From positions 124,001 through 188,000 of the forward strand of contig NZ_PKOJ01000005.1 in assembly GCF_002860325.1 (NCBI RefSeq): a stretch of 64,000 nt of DNA, written 5' to 3'. Below are positions 44,424 through 64,000 of the stretch, piece by piece. Below the pieces are notes generated by a model that was not told the origin of the DNA, did not search any database, and saw only the letters and a list, made by a program, of their open reading frames with translations. The translations under genes were made by a program, and so were the position numbers. Within the stretch, counting starts at the first letter, position 1. Each line of letters begins with the position of its first letter. This stretch comes from Neptunicoccus cionae. GTDB taxonomy: Bacteria > Pseudomonadota > Alphaproteobacteria > Rhodobacterales > Rhodobacteraceae.

Positions 44424-44424
44424 C

Positions 44425-47026: not shown

Positions 47027-47070
47027 TCGCGCCCTCCCCCGCTATTCCCCTTCAAGACGAAAGAAAAAAG

Positions 47071-48576
47071 ATGAACTTTACGCCACATGGAAAACACCTG
47101 ATCGCAGGCACTTGGGTCGGAGGTGGAGAAACCTTTACCTCCTCCCCTGCCCACGGGCCGGAACACACATTCTTCAAAGGCACACCCGATCTTGTGGATC
47201 AGGCCTGTGCCGCTGCCGAAGATGCCTTCTGGTCTTTCGGCTACAGCAACCGCCAGACCCGCGCGGATTTTCTGAACGCGATTGCCGACGAGATCGAGGC
47301 CCGCGCCGATGCGATCACAGAAATAGGCACGCAGGAATCCGGCCTGCCGGAAGCCCGCCTGCAAGGAGAACGGGGCCGCACAACGGGGCAGTTGCGCCTG
47401 TTCGCGGATCACATCCTTGCCGGAGAATACCTTGACCGGCGGCACGATGCAGCCTTGCCGGATCGCAGCCCCCTGCCGCGTCCCGATCTGAAGATGATCC
47501 AGCGCCCCATCGGGCCTGTGGCGGTATTTGGCGCGTCCAACTTTCCGCTGGCCTTTTCAACTGCCGGCGGGGACACAGCCGCCGCTTTGGCCGCAGGTTG
47601 TCCGGTGGTGGTGAAGGGTCATCCGGCCCATCCCGGCACAGGTGAAATCATCGCCGAGGCTGTTCATGCCGCGATAGAAAAGACCGGAATTCACCCCGGT
47701 GTTTTCAGTCTGGTGCAGGACGGAGACCGTGAAACCGGCGCCGCACTGGTGCAGCATCCGCTAATCAATGCGGTCGGATTTACCGGATCGCTGGCAGGCG
47801 GACGTGCCTTGTTTGATCTGTGTGCCGCGCGGCCCAACCCGATCCCGTTTTTCGGAGAGCTCGGTTCGGTTAACCCCATGTTTCTGTTGCCCGAAGCCGC
47901 CAAATCCCGCGGGGCCGAGATCGGCGCGAATTGGGCAGGATCACTGACGATGGGGGCGGGCCAGTTCTGCACCAATCCGGGCGTGACCGTTGTCCTGCCA
48001 GGGGCCGAGGCTTTCATCGGCGCTGCCACTGACGCGCTGAGGGATTCGGGCGAACAAACCATGCTTACAGACGGCATTGCACAGGCCTACCGCCGTGGCG
48101 TTGAACGGATGTCCGGCACTGATACGATCACGGAAATCCTTGTGACCCCTTGTGAGGGGCGCAGCGCGAAGCCCGGCCTCTACCGTGTCACGGCCCGTGA
48201 CTGGCTGGCCGATACCGACTTGCAGGAAGAAGTCTTCGGCCCGCTCGGTATTATAGTTGAAGCGCGGGATACGGATGAGATGGCGCAGATTGCCAAGTCC
48301 ATACAGGGGCAGTTGACCTGTACGCTGCATATGGACGAAGGCGATACCGACCTTGCCAGATCCCTGATGCCGCTGGTCGAGCGCAAGGCCGGACGGCTTT
48401 TGGTGAACGGGTTTCCAACAGGTGTAGAAGTGGCGGACAGTATGGTACATGGCGGCCCCTACCCTGCTTCGACAAACTTTGGGGCAACCTCGGTTGGTAC
48501 ATTGTCCATCCGTCGCTTCCTGCGGCCGGTCTGTTACCAGAATATCCCGGACGCCCTGTTGCCCGAAAGCGTTTGA
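47071..48576 (+). CDS. 2-oxoglutarate semialdehyde dehydrogenase (KGSADH type)
   Basis: 501-residue aldehyde dehydrogenase of the long KGSADH/2,5-dioxovalerate clade. It has FGASNFPLAFSTAGGDTAAALAAGCPVVVKGHPAHPGT, the E263-containing FFGELGSVNP, and nucleophile C300 in GAGQFCTNPG; these replace the standard ALDH motifs and are diagnostic. NAD(P)-dependent oxidation gives 2-oxoglutarate, the end of non-phosphorylative pentonate and glucarate pathways. Last gene of the nine-gene operon, followed by a strong terminator. Confidence 0.92.
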   Translation: MNFTPHGKHLIAGTWVGGGETFTSSPAHGPEHTFFKGTPDLVDQACAAAEDAFWSFGYSNRQTRADFLNAIADEIEARADAITEIGTQESGLPEARLQGERGRTTGQLRLFADHILAGEYLDRRHDAALPDRSPLPRPDLKMIQRPIGPVAVFGASNFPLAFSTAGGDTAAALAAGCPVVVKGHPAHPGTGEIIAEAVHAAIEKTGIHPGVFSLVQDGDRETGAALVQHPLINAVGFTGSLAGGRALFDLCAARPNPIPFFGELGSVNPMFLLPEAAKSRGAEIGANWAGSLTMGAGQFCTNPGVTVVLPGAEAFIGAATDALRDSGEQTMLTDGIAQAYRRGVERMSGTDTITEILVTPCEGRSAKPGLYRVTARDWLADTDLQEEVFGPLGIIVEARDTDEMAQIAKSIQGQLTCTLHMDEGDTDLARSLMPLVERKAGRLLVNGFPTGVEVADSMVHGGPYPASTNFGATSVGTLSIRRFLRPVCYQNIPDALLPESV

Positions 48577-48596
48577 TCCGGCTATAGCCTGATAAT

Positions 48597-48634
48597 AAAC
48601 AGCCCCGCAGTTTTGAACTACGGGGCTGTTTTTT
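48597..48634. terminator. Strong bidirectional rho-independent terminator
   Basis: AAACAGCCCCGCAG ... CTACGGGGCTGTTTTTT: an 11-base stem with a single mismatch, T-run on the right for the rightward operon and an A-rich flank (AATAAACAG) that gives a U-rich tail leftward. It lies between two convergent TTT operons. Confidence 0.9.
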
Positions 48635-48655
48635 GTGCATTGCAGGGTGCCGGCG

Positions 48656-50155
48656 TCAGCTTTGCTTTGCCGCGGTCTTGCGCAACTTGCGGCGTTGCAG
48701 CATCGGGGCCAGTACAGTCGCACTGACCAGAATTACGGCCAGGCCCAGCAGGATCGCGCTGATCGGCCTTTCTGCGAAGATCGAAAAATCCCCGCGCGAC
48801 ATCGCCAGAGAGCGGCGCAACTCGCTTTCCGCTATCGGGCCGAGCACCACGCCAAGAATGATGGACACCAGCGGGAAACCGATCTTTTCAAGCAGGAAAC
48901 CCGCCAGTCCGAACCCCAGCATCAGCCAGACATCCATCATCGAATTCTGCACGGAATAGGTGCCGACAATACAGCAGATGACAATGACCGGACCCAAGGC
49001 GGAATATGGCACATCCAGCAGTTTGGACAGCACCGCAATGAAGGGTTTGGAAAAGACAAGGATCAGCACGTTGACCAGCATCAGCCCCACAAACACCGCA
49101 TAGATCAGATCACTGTTGCCGGTCATGAAGGTCGGTCCGGGAGTCAGGCCGTGTACGATGAACGCCCCCAGAATAACAGCCGTTGTGCCCGACCCCGGAA
49201 TACCAAGCGCAAAGAGCGGCACCAGCGCACCGATGGCGGCCGCGTTATTTGCGGATTCCGGTGCCGCCACGCCTTCGGGTGCCCCGCGCCCGAACCGTTT
49301 ACGGTCCTTGGACCAGCGCACGGTTTCACTGTAAGCCACCATAGCGGCGGTGGACGCCCCGATGCCCGGCAGGATGCCGATTGCGGTACCAATAATAGAG
49401 GACCGCGCGACGGTGCCACGGATTTCGCGGATCACCGGCCAGTCAAAAATGCGGATCTTGAAGGATTTCGTGGACAGGTGGATGTCTCCCTCCTGACAGC
49501 GTTTCAGCACTTCGGAAATCGCAAACAGGCCGATGATAACGGGGATCAGGTTGATCCCGCTCATTAAATGCAGGCTGCCAAAGGTAAACCGCGCCGTTCC
49601 TGTCAGCGGGTCCAGACCGACAGAGGCAATCAGCAGGCCGATACACACGCCAATCAGCCCGAGCAACAGATTGCCGCCAAGTGAGGCGACAACTGTCAGA
49701 CCCAGAACGGCCAGCGCAAAAAATTCGGGCGAGGAAAACTGCAAGGCAATATCCGCCAGCATCGGCGTGGCCACGATCAGCACTATGGTGCCCACGATGC
49801 CACCAAAAGCCGAGGACAGGATACCAATACCAAGCGCCTTGCCCGCTTCACCCTTCTGCGTCATCGGGTAACCGTCAAGCGCGGTCATCACCGCTTCGGG
49901 GGTGCCGGGCGCACGGTAAAGGATCGCCGTAATCAGGCCGGAAAACACACTGGAGGCATAGATCGCTGTCAGCAACATAAAGGCGCCAGTGGGCTCCATC
50001 GTGTAGGTCACTGGCAGCAGGATCACTACCAAAATGACACCACTGATGCCGGGCAAAGCGCCTCCGACAAAGCCGATCAGCACCGCAGAGGCCAGGATCA
50101 AAAGGTTGAGCGGCTGCATGACGACGCCCAAGCCACCGATGAGGTCTTCTATCAT
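48656..50155 (-). CDS. tctA: TTT transporter large permease TctA (system 2)
   Basis: 499-residue membrane protein with GALPGISGVILVVILLPVTY and the internal repeat GILPGIGASTAAMVAYSETVRWSKD, both TctA signatures. AAAGGAC ribosome site before the ATG. It is the last gene of the leftward operon with tctB, tctC and an SAF-domain oxidoreductase. The two TctA proteins of the window differ widely in sequence, so they are not a recent duplication and probably carry different ligands. Confidence 0.92.
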   Translation of the reverse strand: MIEDLIGGLGVVMQPLNLLILASAVLIGFVGGALPGISGVILVVILLPVTYTMEPTGAFMLLTAIYASSVFSGLITAILYRAPGTPEAVMTALDGYPMTQKGEAGKALGIGILSSAFGGIVGTIVLIVATPMLADIALQFSSPEFFALAVLGLTVVASLGGNLLLGLIGVCIGLLIASVGLDPLTGTARFTFGSLHLMSGINLIPVIIGLFAISEVLKRCQEGDIHLSTKSFKIRIFDWPVIREIRGTVARSSIIGTAIGILPGIGASTAAMVAYSETVRWSKDRKRFGRGAPEGVAAPESANNAAAIGALVPLFALGIPGSGTTAVILGAFIVHGLTPGPTFMTGNSDLIYAVFVGLMLVNVLILVFSKPFIAVLSKLLDVPYSALGPVIVICCIVGTYSVQNSMMDVWLMLGFGLAGFLLEKIGFPLVSIILGVVLGPIAESELRRSLAMSRGDFSIFAERPISAILLGLAVILVSATVLAPMLQRRKLRKTAAKQS

Positions 50156-50187
50156 TTTATGTCCTTTTCAGGTGATCACGCGTGGGG

Positions 50188-50682
50188 TCAGGGCAACGGA
50201 ATGTGCAACAGGCGGTCAAACACAAGGGCGACCATCAAAACTGCGGCAACCGTCGTAAACAGGATGCGCAACGGGCGGCGTTCGCCCAGAATAACGTTCA
50301 CAATTGCCGCGAACACGGCTGTGGCGGCCAGATAGCCGGTGAATTCCATCGCAACCGTATAGGCAACGGTCACAGCCAGCACCGCAAGAAAGCGCCAGCG
50401 GTAGCTGCTTGCATCTTCGCGCACGACAGCCTCGTCCGGGACCGTTTCTTCGGGCGGAAGATCATCGTCTTTGGTGATGAAGTGATCCGGTCCGCGCAGG
50501 ATCAGCAGAACGAAAGCCAGCACCACAAAGGCCAGCATCGCAAGGATCACAGCCAGCGGCCATGTGCGCGGGCCGATGAGCGTGGTTACAGAGGCACCGC
50601 CGGGGAGTTGCAGGGCCAGCCACAAAAGCACCACGCCGCTAAAGGCCGTGACAAGAATGAAGGAATAAAGACGTGCGGACAT
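50188..50682 (-). CDS. tctB: TTT transporter small permease TctB (system 2)
   Basis: 164 residues, four helices, with a charged cytoplasmic loop (DDLPPEETVPDEAVV) between helices 2 and 3. Start chosen at MSARLYSF; an in-frame upstream start adds 16 residues without a membrane segment. It lies 32 bases before tctA. Confidence 0.85.
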   Translation of the reverse strand: MSARLYSFILVTAFSGVVLLWLALQLPGGASVTTLIGPRTWPLAVILAMLAFVVLAFVLLILRGPDHFITKDDDLPPEETVPDEAVVREDASSYRWRFLAVLAVTVAYTVAMEFTGYLAATAVFAAIVNVILGERRPLRILFTTVAAVLMVALVFDRLLHIPLP

Positions 50683-50713
50683 GAAGGATCGCCTTGAAAA
50701 TACGAAGCAAATA

Positions 50714-50752
50714 GCGCCGCGGCCAGCCACAATAAGCGGGCCGCCACGGCGC
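50714..50752 (-). promoter_or_regulatory. Stem-loop between tctC and tctB (system 2)
   Basis: GCGCCGCGGC (50714-50723) and GCCACGGCGC (50743-50752) form a 10-base stem with one G-U pair in RNA, in the 80-base gap behind the binding-protein gene. Confidence 0.6.
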
Positions 50753-50762
50753 CGGTTTTAGG

Positions 50763-51722
50763 TCACTTCAATGACAGCAGTTTTTCAAAGTATGCAAGGT
50801 TCTCTTCCAGCACAGCGCGGTAGTCTTCGCTGCCAAGGAAGCCGGGACGAACATGCAGGTTCGCGCTTTTGGCGTAGGCCTGATATTCCTCGGAATTGAA
50901 GACGTCCTGAAACGCAGCTTCAATGATCGCAATTGTTTCAGGCGGGGTCTTGGCATTGATAAAGACGCCCCGTTCGTTCCCGAAGGTCAGGTTCCAGCCG
51001 TTTTCAACCGTAGTTGGCAGGTCGGGATAGGCCTCCAGCCGCTCATCGGCCAGTGCAAGGATCGGTTTCATCTCGCCGGATTCGATATACCCCTGAATGG
51101 CGCTGATTTCGTTGAACATACCGTCGATGTTGCCGCTCAGAAGGTTGGCAGAGGCGCTGCCTTCGTTGTCATAAGGGATGTAGGCCAGATCAAGCCCCGC
51201 TGCATCGTTCAGGCCCAGAAACGCCATCCGGTCCACGCTGGCCGCATGGGTGCCACCGATGATCACTTCACCGGGGTTTTCTTTGGCATAGGTGAGGAAT
51301 TCTTCCAGCGTGTCGTATTTCTCGGTGTTGACCACAAGGGTCAGAACATCCGACTGCATTCGCGCAACCGGTGTCAGTTGGTCCAGACCGATAGGGTTCT
51401 GACCGGCCGCGCGGCTGGTGATGAATGTTGAGGAAGCAAATTCGATGGACTCGCCGTTCGGCTCGCTTTGCGCCGTGCGCTGGTGGGCCATCGCACCGGA
51501 GGCGGACGGCAGGTTGATGATGGTGATATTCGTGTCGAGCCGTTTTTCCAGCATGGGCTGAACGGTACGGGCGAAGTTGTCTGTGCCCCCACCTGCGCCA
51601 GCGGCTACGAAAGCCGTCATTTTCGCAGGTTTGAAAGCCGTTTCCTCAGCCAGCGCCGGTGCTGCAAGCGTCAGCGCGAAAGCCGCAGAGGTAAGGGTGA
51701 ATGTGCGACGGGTAAAATGCAT
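50763..51722 (-). CDS. tctC: TTT transporter substrate-binding protein TctC (system 2)
   Basis: 319 residues with a secretion signal that starts FTRRTFTLTSAAF, resembling a Tat motif. It has KMTAFVAAGAGGGTDNFARTVQPML, the family's carboxylate-binding loop, and the C-terminal IIEAAFQDVFN stretch. GGGAGGACCATC gives a strong ribosome site. It follows the SAF-domain oxidoreductase gene after 82 bases that include a degenerate TTGTATGCAT copy of the GntR-type palindrome. Confidence 0.92.
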   Translation of the reverse strand: MHFTRRTFTLTSAAFALTLAAPALAEETAFKPAKMTAFVAAGAGGGTDNFARTVQPMLEKRLDTNITIINLPSASGAMAHQRTAQSEPNGESIEFASSTFITSRAAGQNPIGLDQLTPVARMQSDVLTLVVNTEKYDTLEEFLTYAKENPGEVIIGGTHAASVDRMAFLGLNDAAGLDLAYIPYDNEGSASANLLSGNIDGMFNEISAIQGYIESGEMKPILALADERLEAYPDLPTTVENGWNLTFGNERGVFINAKTPPETIAIIEAAFQDVFNSEEYQAYAKSANLHVRPGFLGSEDYRAVLEENLAYFEKLLSLK

Positions 51723-51804
51723 GATGGTCCTCCCATAGTTTGTATGCATGTGGTTCTTCAAGTCCCAAGCGCCTCCCAGCGCAGGGGCAGTTTCATAGGG
51801 GTCG

Positions 51805-53205
51805 TCAAATGGCCTCTTTCAAAGTTGCGGCACGGCGGTCCTGTTCTTCGCGCAAACGCAGAAGATCGCTTTCACCGGAAAGATCCAAATCGGCCATTCG
51901 GATCGGCTCCCCCGCGCGGACGTCGCGCAGCAGGGTCCGGTTCGAGGCGATGTAGAACGGGGCAGCGCTTTGCGCGGTTAACGGCGCAGCCGCGACCATG
52001 CGGGCAGAAACCCCTTCGATGGAATGGTGATGCCCGCCCATATCAAGCCGGTTGCCGGCCTTGAAATCCCGGTCTGCAAAGGCAGTCAGATCAACACAAT
52101 GGCGCGGTTGCGCAGCACCCGAAGACACACCCCGCAAAGCAATTTCAAAGATTGTTGTCGCAGCCTCCATCCCGAGCAGATGGCGCGGGATATAGACCAT
52201 CGCGGTGCGTCCGTTGCGGCTCAGCACATGGCCCTTGCCGCGCAGCATGTCCCATGTTTCGTCGTGGCGGCAGCGCACAACGACAAAGACACCGCCGGCA
52301 AAACTGACTTCATCCGGCGTGCGCAGGCAGTGGAAAACATCCAGCACGTTTTCCTGCGTAAGAATGCCACCGTCGGCTTTGGCACACAGGATCGAAGGCA
52401 CTTCGTCAATGCGTGCAATCGGGCAATGCAGGTCGGGGCGGTCAGGGTGCATTTCGCAGGAATTTGCAACAATGGTCATTTCGCACAGGTCCGGCACTGC
52501 CCGTTGTGGCAGGGCGCGGGTTGCTTCTGCACGGCGGGCAACCATGTCCGCAGCCGCTGTATCGCCCAAACGCTCCAGTCCGGCAAATTCGGGGACGGCG
52601 TAGGTTTCACCATTACAATCCAGTGTTCCGCGCGCCGCGTCATAGACAAAATCGTATTCGCTGGATTTACCTGCGCAGATGATCTCAAGCCCGAGCACTT
52701 CGGCCCATGTGATCAACCCGATCAGCAGGCTCGGCTGGTCCCCGTCAACGGGCGAGACAATTACGCCTGCCTCTTGGGCCATTGCCGCAAGGCCCGGACC
52801 AATGACGCTGTCGACCTCTTTGGAGACGAGAGCAACGTGCTTGCCATTCTCGATGGCCAGACGCACATGGCGGGCGCCAACTTCGGGATCGCCCGTGGCC
52901 TCGACAACCACATCAACGGGCAACTCTGCCACGGCAGTAAAACTGTCCGTAGCAATAAAGGCCCCGTCGCGCCACGCCTGACGCGCTGCTTCGGCGTCCT
53001 GACACTGGCGGATTTCTGTTTCTTCAACGCCGACGGAACGCAGACTATCGGCAGCAATACGAACATCACGGTCAACGGCAACACGGACAGACAGCCCGGG
53101 GACTACAAGCCCCTGCGCCAGAAAACTGCGGCCGAATCCGCCAGTCCCGATGATGCAGCACTCTACCTTGCGCGTGCCCCGGTCAAAATAACCGTGGTAA
53201 TTCAT
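51805..53205 (-). CDS. SAF-domain NAD(P)-dependent oxidoreductase (COG4091 type)
   Basis: 466 residues. The N-terminal Rossmann fold (CCIIGTGGFGRSFL, about 12-25) and homoserine-dehydrogenase-like core (VVVEATGDPEVGARH, ALVSKEVD, GDQPSLL) are followed by a C-terminal SAF domain (about 395-450, APFYIASNRTLLRDVRAGEPI). Such proteins are listed as predicted homoserine dehydrogenases or wrongly as FlgA; in sugar-acid and polyol clusters they likely act on branched or C4 substrates. ATG at 53205 has GGGAGGACATC. First gene of TTT operon 2, facing a gntR gene across three palindromes. Confidence 0.83.
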   Translation of the reverse strand: MNYHGYFDRGTRKVECCIIGTGGFGRSFLAQGLVVPGLSVRVAVDRDVRIAADSLRSVGVEETEIRQCQDAEAARQAWRDGAFIATDSFTAVAELPVDVVVEATGDPEVGARHVRLAIENGKHVALVSKEVDSVIGPGLAAMAQEAGVIVSPVDGDQPSLLIGLITWAEVLGLEIICAGKSSEYDFVYDAARGTLDCNGETYAVPEFAGLERLGDTAAADMVARRAEATRALPQRAVPDLCEMTIVANSCEMHPDRPDLHCPIARIDEVPSILCAKADGGILTQENVLDVFHCLRTPDEVSFAGGVFVVVRCRHDETWDMLRGKGHVLSRNGRTAMVYIPRHLLGMEAATTIFEIALRGVSSGAAQPRHCVDLTAFADRDFKAGNRLDMGGHHHSIEGVSARMVAAAPLTAQSAAPFYIASNRTLLRDVRAGEPIRMADLDLSGESDLLRLREEQDRRAATLKEAI

Positions 53206-53226
53206 GATGTCCTCCCATGCCCCGAC

Positions 53227-53359
53227 TTGCATGCAATAACGGGGCAGTATTCCCTTGTGGGTCGAATATGACCCGAATTTCACGTAAATTGCATGCAACA
53301 TTGCCGAATGTCAAACAAAGTTTGTTAAAATTGTTGCCGTTTGCAGTTTTTGCATGCAA
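53227..53359. promoter_or_regulatory. Three identical TTGCATGCAA operators
   Basis: The perfect palindrome TTGCATGCAA occurs at 53227-53236, 53289-53298 and 53350-53359, 62 and 61 bases apart, about six helical turns, so all copies face the same side. The outer copies lie 22 bases before the SAF oxidoreductase start and 10 bases before the chosen gntR start. This is a typical arrangement for a GntR repressor with DNA looping. Confidence 0.8.
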
Positions 53360-54174: not shown

Positions 54175-56325
54175 TTAAAGCTGTCCCAGCGACCAGAAGA
54201 AGGTTTCGCCAGAACTGTCATCGACGCCGTCATTGTCGGTGCTGACCCAAGCAGTACCATCCGCAAAGATCGCGAGTCCTTCAACCTTGTCAACGACATA
54301 GCCATTATTTGCTTTCAGGTCCGGAATGAGATCCTTCACCTCTTCTTTGACAACAACCGGCAGCGTTCCACCAAGTGCGGCTGGCACCATCTGATCACCA
54401 GCGATCCGGTAGACCTTTTTGATCACGGCATTGTCTCCGATCTGGTTGTCCCGCTCGACGACATAGACGTTACCCTCATGTGCGACGATCTCGGAAAGAC
54501 CGACCCAGCCTGTGCCGACAGAGGCTTTGGGATAGAGCACTGCGCCCCACTCTTTGGTCTTGGTGTTGTAAGAGACAAGTTTGACGTGGTTTGCAGGATC
54601 GTCTTTCCATTCCCGCTGCACGGCCATCCACAGCGTGTCGTCAATCAGGGTGATACCTTCAAACCCGAACCGCTTTTCAACCGCAAGGAGTTCGGCCGGC
54701 AGGCTGATTTCCTGCTTGATCTCTCCTTTGGCGTTCACGTTGTAAATGCCGTGGGGGATCATACGGTCGGTACGGCCCTCACTGGCGAGCCAGAAACCGC
54801 CCTCGCCATCCCTTGTTATACCCTCAAGGTCCAGTTTTTGTGCTGGGAAGCCACCCCGTGTAATTGGCAGTGCACGGGTAATGCGTGCGGGAAAGGTTGT
54901 GGTATCAATCGTAAAGATCGTTGGCTGATAGCCGTAGAAACTATCATTCACCGCATAAATCATGGCTTCGTCGCCTGCGACCATGCCGGACAGGGCACCC
55001 CAGCCGATCAGTGTTTCCGCACCTTCGGAAGTGATTTGGGGATAGGCGGCGGGTGCGTTCTGGTATTCGTAGATCATTACGTGGCTGCGGATGCCACCGT
55101 CTTCGATCAGGTCCGCTTCATTGGCGGTGACGAATAGACCGCGCGCAGGGATCGCAATTGCACCTTCTGGCGCGATGCCCGAAGGCAACATCTGTTTCAG
55201 GGTAGGTACGGCAGGATTCGAGACGTCATAAACGCCCACAACAGAGGCCCGTTCCGCCAGAATGAAGACATATGGAGTACCTTCAAACGTGGCAAATTCC
55301 ATCCCTTCAGGCTCGGCCCCTTTCGCATCCGAGCGTTTGTCGGGGTAATGGCCAAGCTGAACAATCGCATGTTCAAAGCTGTTGCCCGCTTCATACACTT
55401 CCGTTCCGTTCTTGTTGAAAATGGTCCAGCCACGGGCGCCGCCGTTCATGTCGCCTTCATTGGCGATGGCAAAGTGATCATCATCAATCCACTGAACCCC
55501 GTCCGGTTCGCGCAAGCGGCCTGTCTGGCTTTCGCTAAAGCGCAATGCGCCGCGTTCGTCCGTGGCGTCAATGTCCTTCAGGTCTACAGAACCAGCGGAG
55601 AAATGGCTGAGGACCGCACCGGCCTTGTCGATCACAACGATATGGTTGTTTTCCTGAAGGGTGACGACGATTTCACCCTTGGCGTTCACATCGACAAACT
55701 CCGGTTCGGGATCGTTTGGCCCGATCCCGGCCAGATTGTCCACATTGACCTTAACCATGCTGTCACAAGCCGGAATGCCGTTTTCGATGTCAAAGGTCAC
55801 CACAAAACCGCCGGGCATCTGGCCAAGACCACCGTCGCCCAAATCCTCGTCACGCTCGTTTTCAATGGCGATGGCGATAAAGCTGCCGTCCGGAGCAATT
55901 GCGGTGCTGTCGGGCTGACCGCCAAGATCGCATTGTACAAGCTCGGCTTTGGTGGTGATGTCATAGGCTTTCAACACACCGGAAGGGGCGGTGTAGCTTT
56001 GGGATGTGTTAACTCCGGCCATGGCCACATTGCCCAGCACTGACACAGCAGTCGGTTCACCCCCGAGAGTGATGTTGCCTTTGGGCTTTGGATTGTGCGG
56101 GTCTGTAATGTCGATCAGGCCAAGTACGCCAAGCGGGCTGTCGGAGTAGACCAGTGTCAGTCCGTCACCCGAAACACTAATGATTTCTGCGGAGGATTCG
56201 GCGGCTGCCTCGGCGTTGTTTTTGAAAGTCGCAAAGCTGCTGATGCGGTTGAAGTTCATTTCGGCGGCGGCGCCTGTGGCTGCAATCGCAAGGATTGAGG
56301 CCAAGCCGGACAGTTTAAGTGCCAT
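54175..56325 (-). CDS. Secreted esterase-like/phytase-like beta-propeller protein
   Basis: 716 residues with a signal peptide (about 1-20, MALKLSGLASILAIAATGAAA). The first part (about 50-400) is a WD/YVTN-type beta-propeller with choice-of-anchor-I-like strands (SVSGDGLTLVYSD, LAGIGPNDPEPEFVDV), and the C-terminal third matches the esterase-like activity of phytase domain (DLEGITRDGEGGFWLASEGR, FGFEGITLIDDTLWMAVQREW). It is probably periplasmic or released and may hydrolyse phosphoesters, but no specific activity can be read. No transporter partner is adjacent. Confidence 0.82.
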   Translation of the reverse strand: MALKLSGLASILAIAATGAAAEMNFNRISSFATFKNNAEAAAESSAEIISVSGDGLTLVYSDSPLGVLGLIDITDPHNPKPKGNITLGGEPTAVSVLGNVAMAGVNTSQSYTAPSGVLKAYDITTKAELVQCDLGGQPDSTAIAPDGSFIAIAIENERDEDLGDGGLGQMPGGFVVTFDIENGIPACDSMVKVNVDNLAGIGPNDPEPEFVDVNAKGEIVVTLQENNHIVVIDKAGAVLSHFSAGSVDLKDIDATDERGALRFSESQTGRLREPDGVQWIDDDHFAIANEGDMNGGARGWTIFNKNGTEVYEAGNSFEHAIVQLGHYPDKRSDAKGAEPEGMEFATFEGTPYVFILAERASVVGVYDVSNPAVPTLKQMLPSGIAPEGAIAIPARGLFVTANEADLIEDGGIRSHVMIYEYQNAPAAYPQITSEGAETLIGWGALSGMVAGDEAMIYAVNDSFYGYQPTIFTIDTTTFPARITRALPITRGGFPAQKLDLEGITRDGEGGFWLASEGRTDRMIPHGIYNVNAKGEIKQEISLPAELLAVEKRFGFEGITLIDDTLWMAVQREWKDDPANHVKLVSYNTKTKEWGAVLYPKASVGTGWVGLSEIVAHEGNVYVVERDNQIGDNAVIKKVYRIAGDQMVPAALGGTLPVVVKEEVKDLIPDLKANNGYVVDKVEGLAIFADGTAWVSTDNDGVDDSSGETFFWSLGQL

Positions 56326-56452
56326 TCTGGTTTCCCGATGTCTGTCGTTTTGCGCGCAGTAATTGGCGCGCTTCGTGACAGGGCGATGACATAAGCGTAA
56401 TGGCCGGATGAAACTTGGGCGCAAATCTACTTTGGCTGACTGCCGCTGCAAG

Positions 56453-57022
56453 TTAGTCGAAAATGTTCGACACAATCTCTCTGGCAAAGGCGGGGTTTAA
56501 CGCTCCCCTATTTAGAAGCCGGTACCAGAAGGCGCCGTGAATCAGGGTTGAGATCGTTTCGGGATTGCGCGAGCTTGGCAGCTCTCCGGTGTCTTGCGCC
56601 CGCACCAGAAGAGCGGTGATCATCCTTTCCCGCGGCTTCACGAAACCGGCATGGAACGACGCCTGAAACCCGCTGTCATGCTGGGCTGCAGCAATCAGGG
56701 CGCGCAATGTATCGCCGTCAATTTCAAGATGGTTGAAGACATTGACAAGAAAGGTTTCAAGCAATGTGCGGCAGTCTTTATCGGTGTCGAAATCCGGTTC
56801 GGCCGCATAGTTGTGGGTCTCTTCGAACACCGCTTCAAGGATCAGATCGGCTTTGGTCGCCCAACGATTGTAAAGGGTCTGACGTGCCACGCCAGCGGCC
56901 TTCGCGATGGCTGCAATGGAAACATTGTCATACCCGTTCGCACGGACGAGCTGTAACGCAGCCGCCTTCAAAGCTTTGCCTGCTTCTGCATTCACCGGCC
57001 TTCCGCTGGCACCTTCACCCAT
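56453..57022 (-). CDS. TetR-family repressor
   Basis: 189 residues; HTH at about 30-60 (SIAAIAKAAGVARQTLYNRWATKADLI), with the TetR_C ligand domain of the AcrR-like class after it. It is divergent from an MFS exporter gene; AATAGACT-CA-AGTCTATT between the two is the probable operator, so both genes should be derepressed by a drug-like ligand. Confidence 0.9.
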   Translation of the reverse strand: MGEGASGRPVNAEAGKALKAAALQLVRANGYDNVSIAAIAKAAGVARQTLYNRWATKADLILEAVFEETHNYAAEPDFDTDKDCRTLLETFLVNVFNHLEIDGDTLRALIAAAQHDSGFQASFHAGFVKPRERMITALLVRAQDTGELPSSRNPETISTLIHGAFWYRLLNRGALNPAFAREIVSNIFD

Positions 57023-58413: not shown

Positions 58414-58878
58414 CTAGAAATCTCCGGGTGCACATTGAAGGCAAACGAGCCCTTCGCCGCGCCATGCTTCAACGACCGAAGAGCGGTCATCAACCACCAG
58501 CCACGGCTTGAAGCCGTCCGCTTTCATTTCGCTGAGCGCACGGCGTTTCACTTCCGGATCAGAGGCTTCGTCCTGATCTTCTGCCCGCAGATAGATCCCG
58601 TCAAACGGCAGGTCGTGTTTGCGAAGCCATGCGATTGTGTGTTCGGCCCAGCCCTTTGGCCGCCCCGAACAGATGACAATGGTCTCACCGCTTTCCTTCA
58701 GCCGGCGCATCAGTTTTGCAATCGGATCGATCAAAGCCGCATCCGCCATCGCGCAATGAAAATCATCCCAGTGTTTTTCAACGCCATGTACAAGATGGCC
58801 AAGCCGGTCCGCATCAAATTCGGCCAATGTGCCATCTACATCAAACACGACACAGGGGGTTGCTGTTGCTTGGGTCAT
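58414..58878 (-). CDS. HAD hydrolase, polynucleotide-kinase 3'-phosphatase-like
   Basis: 154 residues of HAD fold: motif I FDVDGTLAEFD (D13, D15), motif II VICSGR, motif III/IV KPWLVVDDRSSVVEAWRGEG. The arrangement, with a small insert after motif I, matches the PNK 3'-phosphatase-like domain of T4 PNK rather than sugar phosphatases. It has no kinase domain. Its ATG overlaps the histidine phosphatase stop and it is the last gene of the ABC-MBL operon; it may remove phosphate from nucleotide ends or from a small phosphoester. Confidence 0.83.
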   Translation of the reverse strand: MTQATATPCVVFDVDGTLAEFDADRLGHLVHGVEKHWDDFHCAMADAALIDPIAKLMRRLKESGETIVICSGRPKGWAEHTIAWLRKHDLPFDGIYLRAEDQDEASDPEVKRRALSEMKADGFKPWLVVDDRSSVVEAWRGEGLVCLQCAPGDF

Positions 58879-59420
58879 AAGGTCTTTTCCATCATTCTAT
58901 TGTCTGCCCTGTGAAACAGGAGCGGTGTTGCATTGGGGGGGCGCTGGCCGACATCGCCTGTCGTCCAGAGCACACGGGCCGCGCGGATTATGCCCGAGTG
59001 ACACACCAGAACAGGCAGCACCCCGTCAGAGGCAGCGCAGATTTCAGTGATCGTTTCCTGCACCCGCGCCAGCATATCCGGCCAGCTTTCGCCCTGGTCC
59101 GGTGTGGTCTCTCTCTCGGGCTGTCTGCAAAGGGGCTGGCCCTCGAACACGCCCCAGTTGCGTTCGCATAATCCGGCGTGCTGCGTGAAGCTGCTGTCCG
59201 GAAAAGCAAGCTGTGCAGTATGGCACGCCCGTGCCATCGGGCTGGCGTAAAGCGCGATCGGCTCCGGCCAGTTCCGTCCCGAGAGTGCCTGCGCCTGATC
59301 GCGGCCCTTTTGCGTCAGGGGTACATCCGTCACCCCCGCGATGATGTCGTTGGCATTTGCCGTCGTTTCGCCGTGGCGGATCAGACAGAAGCTTCGGGGT
59401 GGCAAGGGGGCGCAGTTCAC
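58875..59420 (-). CDS. Histidine phosphatase-family protein
   Basis: 181 residues of the phosphoglycerate mutase-like superfamily. The catalytic motif is LIRHGETTAN (R15, H16, E18) and the second His lies in VCHSGI; a WGVFEGQPLC segment is typical of the family's alpha-ribazole/fructose-2,6-bisphosphatase-like members. It is a cytoplasmic phosphomonoesterase in the leftward operon, overlapping the MBL gene (ATGA). The substrate is unknown. Confidence 0.86.
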   Translation of the reverse strand: MNCAPLPPRSFCLIRHGETTANANDIIAGVTDVPLTQKGRDQAQALSGRNWPEPIALYASPMARACHTAQLAFPDSSFTQHAGLCERNWGVFEGQPLCRQPERETTPDQGESWPDMLARVQETITEICAASDGVLPVLVCHSGIIRAARVLWTTGDVGQRPPNATPLLFHRADNRMMEKTL

Positions 59421-60484
59421 AGCCGCACCCGATCATGAAAGAACACTTCCGCATCCAGCCCTTCAACAAGGTAGCTTTCGGGTTGTGTGCAAAAGGCAGG
59501 GGCGAAACGCTTTGCCCCAAGACGTTCCAGCATCCTGATCTGGTCGCGCAGCGGAGGGTGGACGTTCCAGCGTTGGAAGTACCCTCCCGGCACGCTGCAA
59601 ATGCCCCGTGCATGGGCTGTCATATGGCCGGTAAAGATCACATGGGCATCCCGGCCCAAACGCCCGCTTTCGTGCCACGCCCGTACATAGCCCCAAGCCG
59701 CGCCACCATCCGCGTTCGGTGTGTCACAAATCAGAAACCGCGCCTGTTCCATTGGACCACGATCCAGCAGCGGGGCGATCTTGTGGGCGTCTTCGCTCAC
59801 CGTGCCACTGGCCAGAGCAGCCCGCAGCGTCTCCTGACATTCAGGGTCCAGCATCACGCTGTCACAACCAAAATGCCGGATCAGATGCAGGGCCATCTCG
59901 CCTGCCCGCCCTGATGGCGGTACAGGCAAAAGAACTTGACCTTCCACCCCGTCCAGCAACGCATTCAGCGCCTTGAGGCGTTCGGACTGGGGCACATCAT
60001 CAAGGTGATAGGAGCAGTCCAGCACAGCCGTTGCAGCAGCAGGTGGTGTATCAAAAGAAAACCAGTCCGACTCTTCCGACCAGTCGCCGGAATAGAACAA
60101 CCCGTCCCCCAGATCAAAGTGCAGCCAGACCCCGCCCATCGCGTGACCGTTGCGCCCCGTGGTTATTTTGACCCCGTCAATCACGCTCTGCCCCTGTTCG
60201 GGCAGCAAGTGCACATTGGCCGCCGGTGGCAGCGCCTTGGCGGTTTGGGCCGTGGCATAGATCGGCAAACCGGCTTCAACCGCATGGGACGCACCGCCGA
60301 TGTGATCGATGTGGTCATGGGTAATGAAAACGGCTTCTGCCCCGTCCAGCCAGTCGGGATCAAAATGCGCGTTGGCTTCGGGCCCGAAACCGCAATCAAG
60401 CAGCCAGATCCGATCGTTCACAGTCAGTTGCACGCATGCAGGGCCCTTGTCCCCGATGCCCGAGAGAAGTTGTATTGTCTGCAT
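59417..60484 (-). CDS. Metallo-beta-lactamase-fold hydrolase with beta-CASP-like C-terminus
   Basis: 355 residues. Metal site HDHIDH (H56, H58, D60, H61), then GHAMGG and FYSGDW. Behind these, VLDCSYH and VLLPVPPSGRAGEMALHLIRHFG are laid out as in beta-CASP nucleases of the CPSF73/RNase J type, and FTGHMTAHARG plus a final Pro-rich PAFCTQPESY close the fold. This suggests a phosphodiester-hydrolysing enzyme rather than a beta-lactamase. It overlaps the histidine phosphatase gene and directly follows the ABC ATPase gene. Confidence 0.8.
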   Translation of the reverse strand: MQTIQLLSGIGDKGPACVQLTVNDRIWLLDCGFGPEANAHFDPDWLDGAEAVFITHDHIDHIGGASHAVEAGLPIYATAQTAKALPPAANVHLLPEQGQSVIDGVKITTGRNGHAMGGVWLHFDLGDGLFYSGDWSEESDWFSFDTPPAAATAVLDCSYHLDDVPQSERLKALNALLDGVEGQVLLPVPPSGRAGEMALHLIRHFGCDSVMLDPECQETLRAALASGTVSEDAHKIAPLLDRGPMEQARFLICDTPNADGGAAWGYVRAWHESGRLGRDAHVIFTGHMTAHARGICSVPGGYFQRWNVHPPLRDQIRMLERLGAKRFAPAFCTQPESYLVEGLDAEVFFHDRVRL

Positions 60485-61534
60485 TTAGTCCTCTGAAAAA
60501 GCCCAAGGTGTTGTGATGGTCAGGCCCAGTTGTGCCCCGACATCAAAGCGGGCGCGCGTTTCTGCAAACAGGCGGGCGCCGCAGTCGGTCACGGTTTCCA
60601 GCAGGTATTTCCCGCCCATATAGGTAACACGCGCAACCTTGCTGCGCAGATCACCGGTTTCGGTGATTGTCAGGTTTTCAGGGCGCAGGCAGACGTGGCT
60701 GACCCGCGACTCCTGTTGTGCCGACTGCACGGCAACCTCTGCCCCCAGAATCCGTGCCTGTTGTGCTGTACCGTCGGTTCTGAACTGCTGCACCGGCACC
60801 ACCGTGCCGCGTCCGACGAACTCTGCCACAAAGCGGTTTTTGGGACGTTCATAGAGGTTCTGGGGGGTGTCAAACTGTTGGATACGCCCTTGGTCCATCA
60901 CGGCAATCCTGTCGGCCATTGCCATTGCCTCGGCCTGATCATGGGTAACATAAACCATCGTCGCGCCGGTGCGTTTGTGAAAATCGGTAAAGACCCCCTG
61001 CATCGTCGCGCGTAGCGCCACATCCAGATTGGCAAGCGGTTCGTCCAGCAGGACGGCACAGGGATCCGACACAAGGCAGCGGGCCAATGCTACCCTCTGG
61101 CGCTGCCCGCCTGACAGATCGGACGGCATACGGTCTGCATAATCTTCAAGCCCGGTCGAGGCGAGCGCCGCGTCCGTGTGCCTGCGGATTTCAGCCCGTG
61201 ACAGACCGCGGATTTCCAGCGGATAGGACACGTTGCGGCGCACCGACATATGGGGCCACAGCGCATAGGACTGGAACACAAATCCGATGTTCCGCTGTTC
61301 GGGCGGAAGGTTCGCGCCGCTGTCCGCGTTGGCCATTTCGCGGCTGCCGATACGGATGCGCCCCTCAGTTGGTTCTTCAAAGCCTGCAAGTATACGCAGG
61401 AGCGTGGTTTTCCCGCAGCCCGACGGTCCCAACAGTGCGATAAACTCGCCATCGTCAAACCGCGTTGTGATGTCTTGCAACGCAGGCGTGCCTGCAAATG
61501 TCTTACCAACCGAAGACAGGTCTATGTCTGCCAT
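60485..61534 (-). CDS. Fe3+/phosphonate-type ABC transporter ATP-binding protein
   Basis: 349 residues: Walker A GPSGCGKTT (about 36-44), signature LSGGQRQR, Walker B AVLLDEPLANLD, and a C-terminal TOBE/regulatory domain (about 240-345). This size and layout match FbpC/PotA/PhnT-like ATPases. Its start overlaps the permease gene by 13 bases. It drives the importer formed with the fused permease and the binding protein. Confidence 0.9.
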   Translation of the reverse strand: MADIDLSSVGKTFAGTPALQDITTRFDDGEFIALLGPSGCGKTTLLRILAGFEEPTEGRIRIGSREMANADSGANLPPEQRNIGFVFQSYALWPHMSVRRNVSYPLEIRGLSRAEIRRHTDAALASTGLEDYADRMPSDLSGGQRQRVALARCLVSDPCAVLLDEPLANLDVALRATMQGVFTDFHKRTGATMVYVTHDQAEAMAMADRIAVMDQGRIQQFDTPQNLYERPKNRFVAEFVGRGTVVPVQQFRTDGTAQQARILGAEVAVQSAQQESRVSHVCLRPENLTITETGDLRSKVARVTYMGGKYLLETVTDCGARLFAETRARFDVGAQLGLTITTPWAFSED

Positions 61535-63228
61535 GGGACAACTCCTTTGGGGAAACGGCGGGAGAAAAGCTGGATCAGGGCCATCAGGACCACGACCACC
61601 AGAACGATGGTCATAGCCAGGGCGCTGGCCATGCCGGTCTCGCCGCTGTCATCAAGATTGAATATCACCACGCCAAGCGTCTCGGTGCCCGAGGACCACA
61701 AAAGCGCGGAAACTGTAAGTTCGTTAAACGCCGTAAGGAAGACGAGGATCGCCCCCGCCGCTGCCGCCGGGGCCGAAAGCGGAAAGATCACATCACGCAA
61801 GCGCCGGTAAAGTGACGCCCCGACCGATTGGGCGGCTTCGTCCATAGCCGGATCAAACTGCTTCAGGCTGGCCTGAACCGGACGGAACATAACCGCGAAG
61901 AAACGGGCGATATAGGCCAGAAAGATGATCCAGATCGTGCCGTAAAGCGTGGCTTCGGTGAAAGGAAGCTTGATCAACAGAAGGATCATCGCGATGGACA
62001 GCACCACCCCCGGCAGCGCGTAAGGCAGATCAAGCAGGCTGTCGAACAGACGTGCCAGACGGGTCTGGCGCCGCTCCATCAGCCACGCCAGAGGCAGGCA
62101 TATTGCCATCAACGCAACAGAGGCACCTGCCGCCAGACCGAAAGAATTGGTAAAGGCCCGCGATGTGACCGGCTGGCGGAACATAACCTCGTACCAGGAC
62201 GCAAGGGTCACCGTATCAAGGCGCAGCGACACGCCATAGGCTGGCACCAGCGACGTGGCCAGAAGTCCGAACATCGGCAGGACGAGAATTGCAAAGACCA
62301 CCGCCCAGAGACAGATTTCAACTGGCAGGCGCGCGGCGCCAAGTGGCAGGGCCAGCGGTCTGGAGGTACTGCCCACAAGGTGCAGTTTCTGACGGCTTTG
62401 AAAGAGCCGTTGCACAAGAATGCCCGCCACGGCCACCGCCCCGATCAGCATGGCAAGAACCGACACTTCAGCGAGCACTGTCGTCCCCATGCCGGCAAGC
62501 TTTTGATAGACGAGGGTGGGCAAAGTCGCATAACCGGCAGGTATGCCGAGCATGGCAGGTATGCCGAAATTCCCAAGCGCGGTTACAAAGGTTATTGCCG
62601 TGCCAGCAGCCAGACTCGGCAGCGTCAGAGGCATCACCACCTGCCACCATGTCCGCAAACCCCGCGCGCCACTGATGCGGGCGGCCTCGACCACGTCCTG
62701 TGGGATCGCGCGCAAACCGGCACGAAGAGTCAGAAAAATGATCGACATATGCTGGATGCCCAGAAGAAAGATGATCCCTTCAGGCGAATACAGGGGCTGC
62801 TTCGCACCAAGTGGTGGCGCAATTCCTAGCGTTTTCAAAAGAACCGACGACGGTCCCATGATCTGGGTCCACGACAGGGCCGTAATCTGCGGGGGGATCA
62901 TCATCGGAATCATCAGGCAGAAAACCAGAGCCGCCTTGGCGCGCAAATCCGTCAGCGCGACCAGAAAGGCGAAGGCAGAACCCAACACCAGAGAGACCAG
63001 AGTGCCAAAACCGGCTGTAACCAGAGAATGCTTCAGTGCGCTGAGCGTTGACGGCTGTGCCAGCACATCACGCATCAAGCCAAGACTGGGGCTGCCCTGA
63101 TCCGTGACGCCTTCCACAAAAAGGCGCAGTACCGGGGCAAGCGTCAGGCAGATCGCAAGGACCAGAATAGCAGAGAGCAGCCGGGCCTCGGACCGGCTGC
63201 CTCCATGATTTTGCGTGGCGCTCATCAT
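61522..63228 (-). CDS. Fused two-domain ABC permease (iron/2-aminoethylphosphonate type)
   Basis: 568 residues formed by two permease halves of about six helices each, with EAA loops VVEAARISGARGLRTWWQVVMPL and DEAAQSVGASLYRRLRDVIFPL. This double form is found in FbpB/SfuB-type iron and in AEP importers. Its ATG overlaps the binding-protein stop (ATGA). It completes the three-part importer with the ATPase and binding-protein genes. Confidence 0.9.
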   Translation of the reverse strand: MMSATQNHGGSRSEARLLSAILVLAICLTLAPVLRLFVEGVTDQGSPSLGLMRDVLAQPSTLSALKHSLVTAGFGTLVSLVLGSAFAFLVALTDLRAKAALVFCLMIPMMIPPQITALSWTQIMGPSSVLLKTLGIAPPLGAKQPLYSPEGIIFLLGIQHMSIIFLTLRAGLRAIPQDVVEAARISGARGLRTWWQVVMPLTLPSLAAGTAITFVTALGNFGIPAMLGIPAGYATLPTLVYQKLAGMGTTVLAEVSVLAMLIGAVAVAGILVQRLFQSRQKLHLVGSTSRPLALPLGAARLPVEICLWAVVFAILVLPMFGLLATSLVPAYGVSLRLDTVTLASWYEVMFRQPVTSRAFTNSFGLAAGASVALMAICLPLAWLMERRQTRLARLFDSLLDLPYALPGVVLSIAMILLLIKLPFTEATLYGTIWIIFLAYIARFFAVMFRPVQASLKQFDPAMDEAAQSVGASLYRRLRDVIFPLSAPAAAAGAILVFLTAFNELTVSALLWSSGTETLGVVIFNLDDSGETGMASALAMTIVLVVVVLMALIQLFSRRFPKGVVPWQT

Positions 63229-64000
63229 TGTGCGCCGAAAAGCTCTGCGAACTTGGCTTTGTTAGCCTCTGCATTTGCAAGAGCCTCGGCCGGGTCGAAG
63301 GCCATCAGCTTGATTTCTTCGCGGGACGGGAAACCTTCTGGCACACCCATGCCGTTACGGGCAGGAATATAGCCCATGTCGAGCACAAGGTTCTGGCCAG
63401 CGTCGCTCAGCAGGAAGTCGACAAATTTCTGTGCACCTTCCACGTTCTTGGCGGAGGACATGATCGCCACAGGCTCTGTTACATAAGACACGCCCTCTTC
63501 AGGGAACACAAAATCCACAGGGGATCCGTCGGCTTTGTTCCGGATGGCAAGGAAGTCCACGACCATGCCATAAGGTTTTTCACCGGAGGCAACGGCTTTG
63601 AATGTGCCACCGTTTCCACCCTGCGCACGGGCCTCATTTGCGGCCAGATTTTCGTAATAGCTCCAACCCAGCGTTTCATCGCCGGTCAGGGTTGCGAGGT
63701 GGATCAGGGCCGCGCCGGAATAGAGCGGCGAAGGCATTGCAATTTGCCCTTTGATCGCATCATCCGAAAGGTCTTTCCACGATGTCGGAGCGGTTTCGAT
63801 ACCTGTGTTGTAAACGATACCCGTAGTGATCAGTTTGGTGGAGTGGTAGTAACCTTCACCGGAATAGAGAGTGGCATCATATTCAGCGGCTTCAGGGGAT
63901 TGATAGGCGGTCAGCAGATCTTCCTGCGCCATACCTTCCAGCGTTACGGTATCAGCGATCAAAAGGACATCCGGCTGGGGGTTGCCTGCTTCGATTTCGG
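63225..64000 (-). CDS. ABC transporter substrate-binding protein (iron/phosphonate type), 5' partial
   Basis: C-terminal 257 residues of a type-2 periplasmic binding protein; the frame is open to the window end, where NPQPDVLLIADTVTLEGM continues, so the signal peptide and first domain lie outside. The visible part has SGEGYYHSTKLITTGIVYNT and PTSWKDLSDDAIKGQIAMPSPLYSGAALIHLA, common in FbpA-like and AEP/phosphate-ester binding proteins. The tyrosine pair used for Fe3+ by FbpA is not evident in this part, so a phosphonate or organophosphate ligand is plausible. Confidence 0.87.
   Translation of the reverse strand, partial: EIEAGNPQPDVLLIADTVTLEGMAQEDLLTAYQSPEAAEYDATLYSGEGYYHSTKLITTGIVYNTGIETAPTSWKDLSDDAIKGQIAMPSPLYSGAALIHLATLTGDETLGWSYYENLAANEARAQGGNGGTFKAVASGEKPYGMVVDFLAIRNKADGSPVDFVFPEEGVSYVTEPVAIMSSAKNVEGAQKFVDFLLSDAGQNLVLDMGYIPARNGMGVPEGFPSREEIKLMAFDPAEALANAEANKAKFAELFGAQ

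What the first reader, a model, noticed from the sequence alone, without database searches (positions are those of the whole stretch)
58414..64000. ABC importer operon with beta-CASP-like nuclease, histidine phosphatase and PNK-phosphatase-like HAD
Six overlapping genes join an iron/phosphonate-type importer to three hydrolases, all with folds that act on phosphodiesters or phosphomonoesters. This would suit import and stepwise dephosphorylation of a phosphodiester, nucleotide or oligonucleotide. I know of no described system with this composition; it is the best candidate here for a new one.
Basis: inference. Interest (0 to 1): 0.75.

Follow-up and report, generated by a model that had tools for sequence, protein, structure and literature searches.

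The report
Importer operon that dismantles imported phosphodiesters
A conserved but apparently undescribed gene set in many marine and soil bacteria seems to import a small phosphate compound and take it apart with a nuclease-like enzyme followed by one of several interchangeable phosphatases; what the compound is remains unknown.

Summary
Six tightly packed minus-strand genes encode a binding protein (its start lies 194 bases past the window), a fused permease, an ATPase, a metallo-beta-lactamase hydrolase, a histidine phosphatase and a PNKP-type HAD. A divergent DeoR/GlpR regulator lies just outside; a palindromic site stands in 18 of 22 such intergenic regions. The hydrolase model has a beta-CASP (nuclease) fold.

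The association is real. Of 52 other loci with this hydrolase, 50 carry the same importer and 48 a phosphatase. The phosphatase slot is filled by four unrelated folds (histidine phosphatase, HAD, cysteine DSP, SurE), while the binding protein's phosphate cradle and a Tyr beside it are invariant in 48 of 48. None of 24 importer loci without the hydrolase has such a phosphatase. This suggests import, phosphodiester cleavage, then removal of phosphate. Iron ligands and AfuA's sugar triad are absent.

It works like the agrocinopine Acc system with parts that look unrelated. Substrate and activities are untested; a small sugar- or polyol-type phosphodiester is favoured, cyclic nucleotides are a rival, oligonucleotides are unlikely. 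My literature searches listed no paper on this composition. New variant of a known kind.

The parts
58414..58878 (-). HAD phosphatase, PNKP 3'-phosphatase type (154 aa); last gene of the operon
   Evidence: Pfam HAD_PNKP 86.6 bits against cut-off 27.6; DVDGT and DDR motifs in the translation; best solved matches are polynucleotide kinase/phosphatases
58875..59420 (-). Histidine phosphatase, branch 1 (181 aa, GTG start)
   Evidence: Pfam His_Phos_1 103.7 bits against cut-off 21.7; RHGE motif; below the CobC equivalog cut-off (74.7 against 162.9)
59417..60484 (-). Metallo-beta-lactamase-fold hydrolase with beta-CASP domain (355 aa), no signal peptide seen by eye; proposed phosphodiesterase
   Evidence: HxHxDH, H114, D134, D156, H287, H309; model pLDDT 83.1; Foldseek matches
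60485..61534 (-). ABC importer ATPase with TOBE domain (349 aa)
   Evidence: Pfam ABC_tran 123.2 bits and TOBE_2 27.0 bits, both above cut-off
61522..63228 (-). ABC importer permease, two fused membrane domains (568 aa)
   Evidence: Pfam BPD_transp_1 in two stretches; best NCBIfam PhnU2 182.7 bits, below cut-off 593
63225..64000 (-). Binding protein of the FbpA/AfuA/PhnS fold group; the gene continues 194 bases beyond the window (whole gene L009:7226-8194, 322 aa). The divergent DeoR/GlpR regulator (L009:8366-9130) and the CTTTCGTTCGAAAG site (own genome C13:188215-188228) also lie beyond the window end
   Evidence: Pfam SBP_bac_6 and SBP_bac_8; phosphate-cradle residues T56, S159, G160 invariant; site

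Best explanation
An import-and-dismantle operon for a small phosphodiester (or otherwise substituted phosphate ester) with a sugar- or polyol-like end. The binding protein catches the compound by its phosphate in the periplasm and the ABC importer brings it in whole. The cytosolic beta-CASP-type hydrolase cuts the phosphodiester into an alcohol and a phosphomonoester. The histidine phosphatase and/or HAD (in other lineages a cysteine DSP phosphatase or SurE) then removes the phosphate. The divergent DeoR-family repressor probably senses the phosphorylated intermediate and controls this operon. Shown here by computation: gene set, conservation, exchange of the phosphatase, predicted fold and catalytic motifs, conserved phosphate cradle, conserved palindrome. 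Inferred: every activity, the order of steps, the effector and the substrate.
For: 1) 50 of 52 hydrolase loci besides the window carry binding protein, permease and ATPase; 48 of 52 carry a phosphatase of one of four folds within 6.5 kb; 0 of 24 hydrolase-free importer loci do. 2) Phosphatase in the operon, recounted from the rows: histidine phosphatase alone 14, with HAD 19, HAD alone 3, DSP 7, SurE 5, none 4. 3) Phosphate contacts named for AfuA and P5PA (PMC8427247 and PMC4546632, passages) map, by my reading of the alignment, onto T56, S159, G160, invariant in 48 of 48 hydrolase-linked binding proteins; AfuA's Thr150 is Ala in 48 of 48. The further contacts Thr60, Gly38, Gly185 and Ser183 were not mapped. 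4) Position 158, beside that cradle, is Tyr in 48 of 48 linked but 1 of 25 hydrolase-free proteins; that one, L176 (sequence), sits inside the linked group. 5) Beta-CASP fold and metal motifs. 6) Divergent DeoR regulator; TTTCGNNCGAAA in 18 of 22 intergenic regions, 200 shuffle rounds mean 0.025 loci, largest 1; the only perfect CTTTCGNWCGAAAG place in the 4.29 Mb genome is here. 7) The one row of 53 that lost metal ligands (L121) has no importer beside it. 8) Precedent: agrocinopine Acc operon, where the DeoR-family AccR binds the phospho-sugar product of phosphodiesterase AccF (PMC4526662, passages).
Against: No activity or ligand is measured. MBL folds also catalyse other hydrolyses, and the beta-CASP enzymes that I know act on nucleic acids (recalled). 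Motif B His is Tyr, Phe or Ser in 10 of 53 rows, nine of them in loci with the importer. 25 of 44 family genomes have the importer's binding protein without the hydrolase. Four of 52 loci have no phosphatase nearby. The phosphatase profiles were built from these operons, so the 0 of 24 control only excludes like subfamilies. L117 also lacks the importer yet keeps its metal ligands. The DSP example scores just under its Pfam cut-off (32.9 against 33.5). By fold the best match of the modelled binding protein (L055) is iron-bound HitA. The 12-base core of the palindrome occurs at two further places in L009, and one-mismatch sites in the genome are at control level. No Pho-box-like site lies in the intergenic region. 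The one other genome of the same genus in the sample (G120) lacks both genes.
Confidence: 0.6

Rival explanations
1. The substrate is nucleotide-like, for example a 2',3'- or 3',5'-cyclic nucleotide: the MBL opens the ring or cuts the diester, and the phosphatases act as 3'/5'-nucleotidases.
For: Beta-CASP relatives are nucleases; HAD is of the PNKP phosphatase family; SurE is annotated as a 5'/3'-nucleotidase; the SorC-type regulator of a SurE-type locus is nearest the Bacillus-type DeoR model and the LacI-type regulator nearest an RbsR model, both far below cut-off.
Against: Histidine phosphatase and DSP are not typical nucleotidases (recalled); no nucleoside catabolic gene was noticed beside the operons; regulator matches are weak.
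Confidence: 0.17
2. The MBL protein is not a phosphodiesterase but another hydrolase (for example a lactonase, as in UlaG-type MBL enzymes, recalled) acting on an imported sugar phosphate that is then dephosphorylated.
For: MBL folds are versatile; AfuA, VcA0625 and P5PA, close solved binding proteins, take phosphomonoesters; motif B variation; a paralogous importer operon in L052 has a histidine phosphatase and no MBL.
Against: Fold and motifs A and C are those of phosphodiesterases; AfuA's sugar-ring triad is absent.
Confidence: 0.15
3. Iron or 2-aminoethylphosphonate importer with hydrolases that sit there for unrelated reasons.
For: Annotators call the permease an iron ABC permease; PhnS2 and PhnU2 are the best NCBIfam names of binding protein and permease, PhnT2 the third of the ATPase; iron-bound HitA is the best fold match.
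Against: Those NCBIfam scores are far below the curated cut-offs; the Tyr pair of C. jejuni FbpA aligns with F214 and L215; hydrolase and importer stay together in 50 of 52 hydrolase loci.
Confidence: 0.05
4. The beta-CASP protein is an RNase that regulates the operon's own messenger.
For: Its fold is that of mRNA-processing nucleases.
Against: It is with the importer in 50 and a phosphatase in 48 of 52 loci; it is compact (131 residues from D156 to H287) and, by length, has no RNA-binding extension.
Confidence: 0.03

Closest known systems
Agrocinopine catabolism (Acc) system of Agrobacterium tumefaciens C58
   Same: ABC importer, phosphodiesterase (AccF), phosphatase (AccG) and a DeoR-family repressor (AccR) that binds the phospho-sugar product (PMC4526662, passages)
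   Different: Here the importer is FbpA/PhnS-like, the candidate phosphodiesterase is a beta-CASP MBL protein, and the phosphatase is a histidine phosphatase, HAD, DSP or SurE; Acc proteins were not compared here by sequence, their families are recalled
AfuABC hexose-phosphate importer and P5PA pyridoxal-phosphate binding protein
   Same: Binding protein in the same fold group, phosphate cradle partly conserved
   Different: AfuA ring triad H205/D206/E229 and cradle Thr150 are not conserved; that Afu and P5P operons carry no MBL is recalled
PhnS2/PhnU2/PhnT2 2-aminoethylphosphonate transporter models (TIGR03261, TIGR03262, TIGR03265)
   Same: Best NCBIfam names for the binding protein and permease, third best for the ATPase
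   Different: 136, 183 and 304 bits against cut-offs of 393, 593 and 458
Beta-CASP nucleases (CPSF73, aCPSF1, TTHA0252, RNase J)
   Same: Predicted fold and motifs 2-4, A and C
   Different: Compact, transporter-linked, motif B His replaced in 10 of 53 rows
GpxB glycerol-1-phosphate/glycerol-3-phosphate importer of marine bacteria
   Same: Marine organophosphate ABC importer (PMC12718374, abstract and passages)
   Different: GpxB is in the PhnT family 3.A.1.9, clade D-III, which I take to be PF12974 (recalled); this binding protein shows no PF12974 match at E 0.01

Membership tests
Ferric importer FbpABC | Iron-binding Tyr pair and N-terminal His/Tyr ligand of the binding protein | tested here: not met
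   Profile alignment to C. jejuni FbpA (1y4t): its YY aligns with F214 and L215, its RHY with the QPN region; which residues bind iron is recalled
Hexose-phosphate importer AfuABC | H205, D206, E229 sugar-ring triad | tested here: not met
   By the alignment these fall on positions 214, 215 and about 238 here, which hold F/Y/A, L/M/D/N and V/I/F; triad from PMC4546632 passages
Hexose-phosphate importer AfuABC | Phosphate contacts S37, S148, G149, T150 | tested here: inconclusive
   T56, S159, G160 invariant, fourth position Ala: cradle partly shared, one contact lost; other named contacts not mapped
2-aminoethylphosphonate transporter (TIGR03261/03262/03265) | Score above the curated equivalog cut-off | tested here: not met
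   136.3, 182.7 and 304.5 bits, all below cut-off
Beta-CASP metallo-beta-lactamase fold | MBL metal motifs plus inserted beta-CASP domain with motifs A, B, C | tested here: met
   50 listed Foldseek matches; motif columns; B is His in this protein and in 43 of 53 rows
Beta-CASP nuclease | Cleavage of nucleic acid | not testable with these tools
   No assay
PNKP 3'-phosphatase (HAD_PNKP) | Family profile and DxDGT, DDR motifs | tested here: met
   86.6 bits against 27.6, motifs; at 154 aa there is no room for a kinase domain
Alpha-ribazole phosphatase CobC | Score above TIGR03162 cut-off | tested here: not met
   74.7 against 162.9 bits
GpxB glycerol phosphate importer | PhnD-type binding protein (PF12974, assignment recalled) | tested here: not met
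   No PF12974 match at E 0.01; none of 8 PF12974 places of the own genome is at this locus
Agrocinopine Acc system | AccA/AccF/AccG homologues | not tested
   Acc sequences were not compared; likeness is in logic, from PMC4526662 passages
Agrocinopine Acc system | Local DeoR-family regulator | tested here: met
   Divergent DeoR with conserved palindrome

The most novel reading that the evidence does not exclude
The nuclease fold of RNase J and CPSF73 has been turned into a small-molecule phosphodiesterase at the heart of a widespread, modular uptake pathway for an unrecognised class of environmental phosphodiester. One binding-protein pocket and one phosphodiesterase family are kept while four unrelated phosphatases replace each other downstream.
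Probability: 0.4. Interest if true: 0.8.

Novelty: new variant of a known kind. Interest (0 to 1): 0.62.

Why it matters
If right, a set of 'iron' or 'phosphonate' importers in marine roseobacters, Paracoccus, Pannonibacter and Nitratireductor, Halomonas and some Enterobacter plasmids is misnamed, and there is a route by which bacteria take in phosphodiesters whole instead of cutting them outside the cell. It would give the beta-CASP fold a role outside nucleic-acid metabolism. It also offers a clean case of unrelated phosphatases filling one pathway slot, and makes the substrate directly testable with purified proteins from harmless marine strains.

Tried and rejected
Iron importer: disfavoured on ligand residues, although HitA is the best fold match. 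AEP importer: cut-offs not met. AfuA-type hexose phosphate: triad absent. GpxB glycerol phosphate: different binding-protein family. Pho-box control: 9 weak matches in L009 with up to 3 mismatches, none in the intergenic region. Neighbouring genes as a clue to substrate: flanking ORFs were clustered. The commonest in hydrolase loci were a TRAP-type permease in 6 loci and a GGDEF-like and a GntR-type protein in 5 each (named by eye), all common families at varying distance; uronate genes recur in L037, L107, L108. None was taken as part of the system. E. coli: 315 of 5426 genomes match the Enterobacter query, none over 80% of it; the ten listed are fbpC ATPases. Terminator scan at the operon end gave nothing on the minus strand. 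Literature: searches returned no paper; others (6 listed; 8 listed; 8 of 27 listed; 15 of 256 listed) showed no title or abstract start that describes this system. Five papers were read in passages only (PMC4546632, PMC8427247, PMC4526662, PMC10132767, and PMC12718374 with abstract and outline); PMC10130141 was asked for once, the call failed on a bad search word, and it was not read.

Limits of the counts: the 52 loci are related, not independent, and do not include the window. Two duplicates (L042, L122) were dropped before counting. The surroundings of 18 plasmid records were fetched, of 73 matched and 70. Of 25 hydrolase-free importer loci, 24 passed the score limit (L166 did not); several lie on short contigs (L175, L178, L181, L184), so absence is less sure there. 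The count HISP 34 includes one (L052) from a neighbouring second operon. Binding-protein residue counts rest on 48 linked proteins (the window's plus 47 of the 50 loci; L047, L049, L106 were not aligned). Catalytic-motif counts by simple patterns (RHG 33 of 36, second His 33 of 36, DxDGT 20 of 23, SGR 22 of 23, DDR 17 of 23, DSP signature 6 of 7, SurE NDDG 5 of 5) were not checked one by one; some misses may be real. In the binding-protein tree L163 is a very long branch and its place is unsure; roots are midpoints.
Full report
What is there. The binding protein starts 194 bases past the window end; beyond it, divergently, lies a DeoR/GlpR-family regulator of 254 aa. The window is C13:124001-188000 of a 4.29 Mb genome in 17 contigs. 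Pfam assigns each protein above cut-off; among the NCBIfam matches listed (the best 25 per protein) none reaches its cut-off. By eye the three hydrolases show no signal peptide, so they are taken to be cytosolic, and the binding protein has one.

The hydrolase. HxHxDH, motif 3 His, motif 4 Asp, motif A Asp (D156) and motif C His (H309) are each kept in at least 52 of 53 rows (the window and 52 relatives); motif B is His in 43, Tyr in 6, Phe in 3, Ser in 1. The protein is compact (355 aa; 131 residues from D156 to H287). The one row with lost metal ligands, from Falsirhodobacter algicola (L121), stands without the importer; L117, also without it, keeps its metal ligands.

Conservation. A single-protein search found the hydrolase in 19 of 295 genomes of the family, a profile again in 19 of 295, and in 17 of 398 genomes drawn from the phylum, an overlapping sample; tblastn found it in 73 plasmid records. 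The one other genome of the same genus, G120, has neither hydrolase nor binding protein. Neighbourhoods were read for 54 loci besides the window. After dropping two duplicates, 50 of 52 have the binding protein, permease and ATPase of this family, the exceptions being L117 and L121, and 48 of 52 have a phosphatase. Recounted from the rows: histidine phosphatase alone in 14, with HAD in 19, HAD alone in 3, a cysteine-type DSP in 7, SurE in 5, none in 4 (L110, L117, L119, L121). Examples with the record's own annotation are Phaeobacter inhibens, Pannonibacter with DSP, Nitratireductor with SurE and Enterobacter with histidine phosphatase. The Pannonibacter DSP has the HC-x5-R signature but scores just under the Pfam cut-off (32.9 against 33.5); the SurE protein is well above its Pfam cut-off. 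On the hydrolase tree the phosphatase types need 10 changes (least possible 5) against a shuffled mean of 28.8; SurE and HAD-alone each sit on one side of a branch. So the slot changed to an unrelated fold at least for the DSP and SurE groups, and HAD and histidine phosphatase come and go, while importer and hydrolase stayed. That is the strongest single argument that the step after the hydrolase is removal of a phosphate.

Importer without hydrolase. The binding protein occurs in 44 of the 295 family genomes, all 19 with the hydrolase among them. The other 25 loci were fetched. In those with an ATPase in the stretch it mostly faces the permease, and none of 24 scored loci has a phosphatase of the four families near; the profiles were built from the operons, so this control speaks only for like subfamilies. 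On the binding-protein tree 23 of the 25 form one clade; L176 sits inside the hydrolase-linked group as a likely recent loss, and L163 is a long branch. Position 158, next to the phosphate cradle, is Tyr in 48 of 48 linked proteins; in the 25 others it is Thr 19, Ala 3, Glu 1, His 1, Tyr 1 (the Tyr is L176). The two groups may thus take different ligands.

The ligand pocket. By sequence the closest solved proteins are the sugar-phosphate protein VcA0625, AfuA and the pyridoxal-phosphate protein P5PA; by fold, with the L055 homologue as model, iron-bound HitA comes first, then a metal-citrate protein, VcA0625 and AfuA. Papers on AfuA (PMC4546632, passages) and P5PA (PMC8427247, passages) list the phosphate contacts; the equivalents T56, S159 and G160, mapped by me from the alignment, are invariant here, while AfuA's Thr150 is Ala in 48 of 48 and its ring triad is gone. 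The Tyr pair of the C. jejuni iron protein is also absent. A phosphate-bearing ligand with a different second part is indicated. A lost contact to a phosphate oxygen would suit a substituted (diester) phosphate; that last step is inference.

Regulation. TTTCGNNCGAAA lies in 18 of 22 regulator-to-binding-protein intergenic regions, 16-38 bases before the gene in 17 of the 18 and 1 base by my coordinates in L043; 200 shuffle rounds gave a mean of 0.025 loci and at most 1. For some loci the region borders were set approximately. The perfect 14-base site occurs at one place in the own genome, here; one-mismatch sites are no more frequent than the control, and the 12-base core occurs at two more places in L009. 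The regulator thus seems dedicated, though other targets are not excluded. No Pho-box-like site falls in the intergenic region. Other lineages use LacI- or SorC-type regulators.

What it works like. The agrocinopine Acc system imports a sugar phosphodiester, cuts it with AccF, has a putative phosphatase AccG, and its DeoR-family repressor AccR responds to the phospho-sugar product and not to the diester (PMC4526662, passages). The present operon has the same logic with parts that look unrelated (Acc families recalled, not compared). It is therefore filed as a new variant of a known kind, not as a member of Acc, Afu, Fbp, Phn or Gpx. The phosphodiester reading gets 0.6, nucleotide-type ligands 0.17, a non-phosphodiester MBL reaction 0.15.

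Not settled. Substrate, all activities, effector and expression are unknown. Literature searches in open PMC text listed no paper on this gene set; some lists were capped, and subscription papers and preprints are not held.

Noticed in passing
L052:8548-13422 (genome G010): A second, distantly related importer operon (binding protein, permease, ATPase) with its own histidine phosphatase and no MBL lies beside the SurE-type operon: possibly a phosphomonoester importer with a phosphatase.
   Followed up: partly
L121:6941-8014 (Falsirhodobacter algicola plasmid): Solitary relative of the MBL hydrolase that has lost most of the HxHxDH and the motif 4 metal ligand and has no importer of this family beside it.
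   Followed up: partly
L161-L185 (hydrolase-free importer loci): A sister importer clade with a mostly convergent ATPase gene, no hydrolases, and mostly Thr or Ala instead of Tyr beside the phosphate cradle; its ligand is unknown.
   Followed up: partly
L118:9153-10817 and L053:319-1986: A Na/Pi cotransporter-family gene lies near two of the five SurE-type operons; it might export surplus phosphate.
   Followed up: partly
L034 and L122 (Enterobacter plasmids OW849205.1 and NZ_CP059418.1): The importer, MBL and histidine phosphatase operon is carried on large Enterobacter plasmids from human samples, with identical hydrolase, in L122 downstream of an IS5-like element.
   Followed up: no
window 43512-53301: By eye, a sugar-acid type island: DapA-like aldolase, GntR regulators, PdxA-like and hydroxyisobutyrate-dehydrogenase-like enzymes, aldehyde dehydrogenase and a tripartite tricarboxylate transporter. 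No family search was run.
   Followed up: no
window 54175-56487: Large secreted-looking protein (770 aa with the TTG start, likely shorter) that by eye resembles phytase-like esterase proteins; separated from the operon by a TetR-type and an MFS gene, also named by eye.
   Followed up: no
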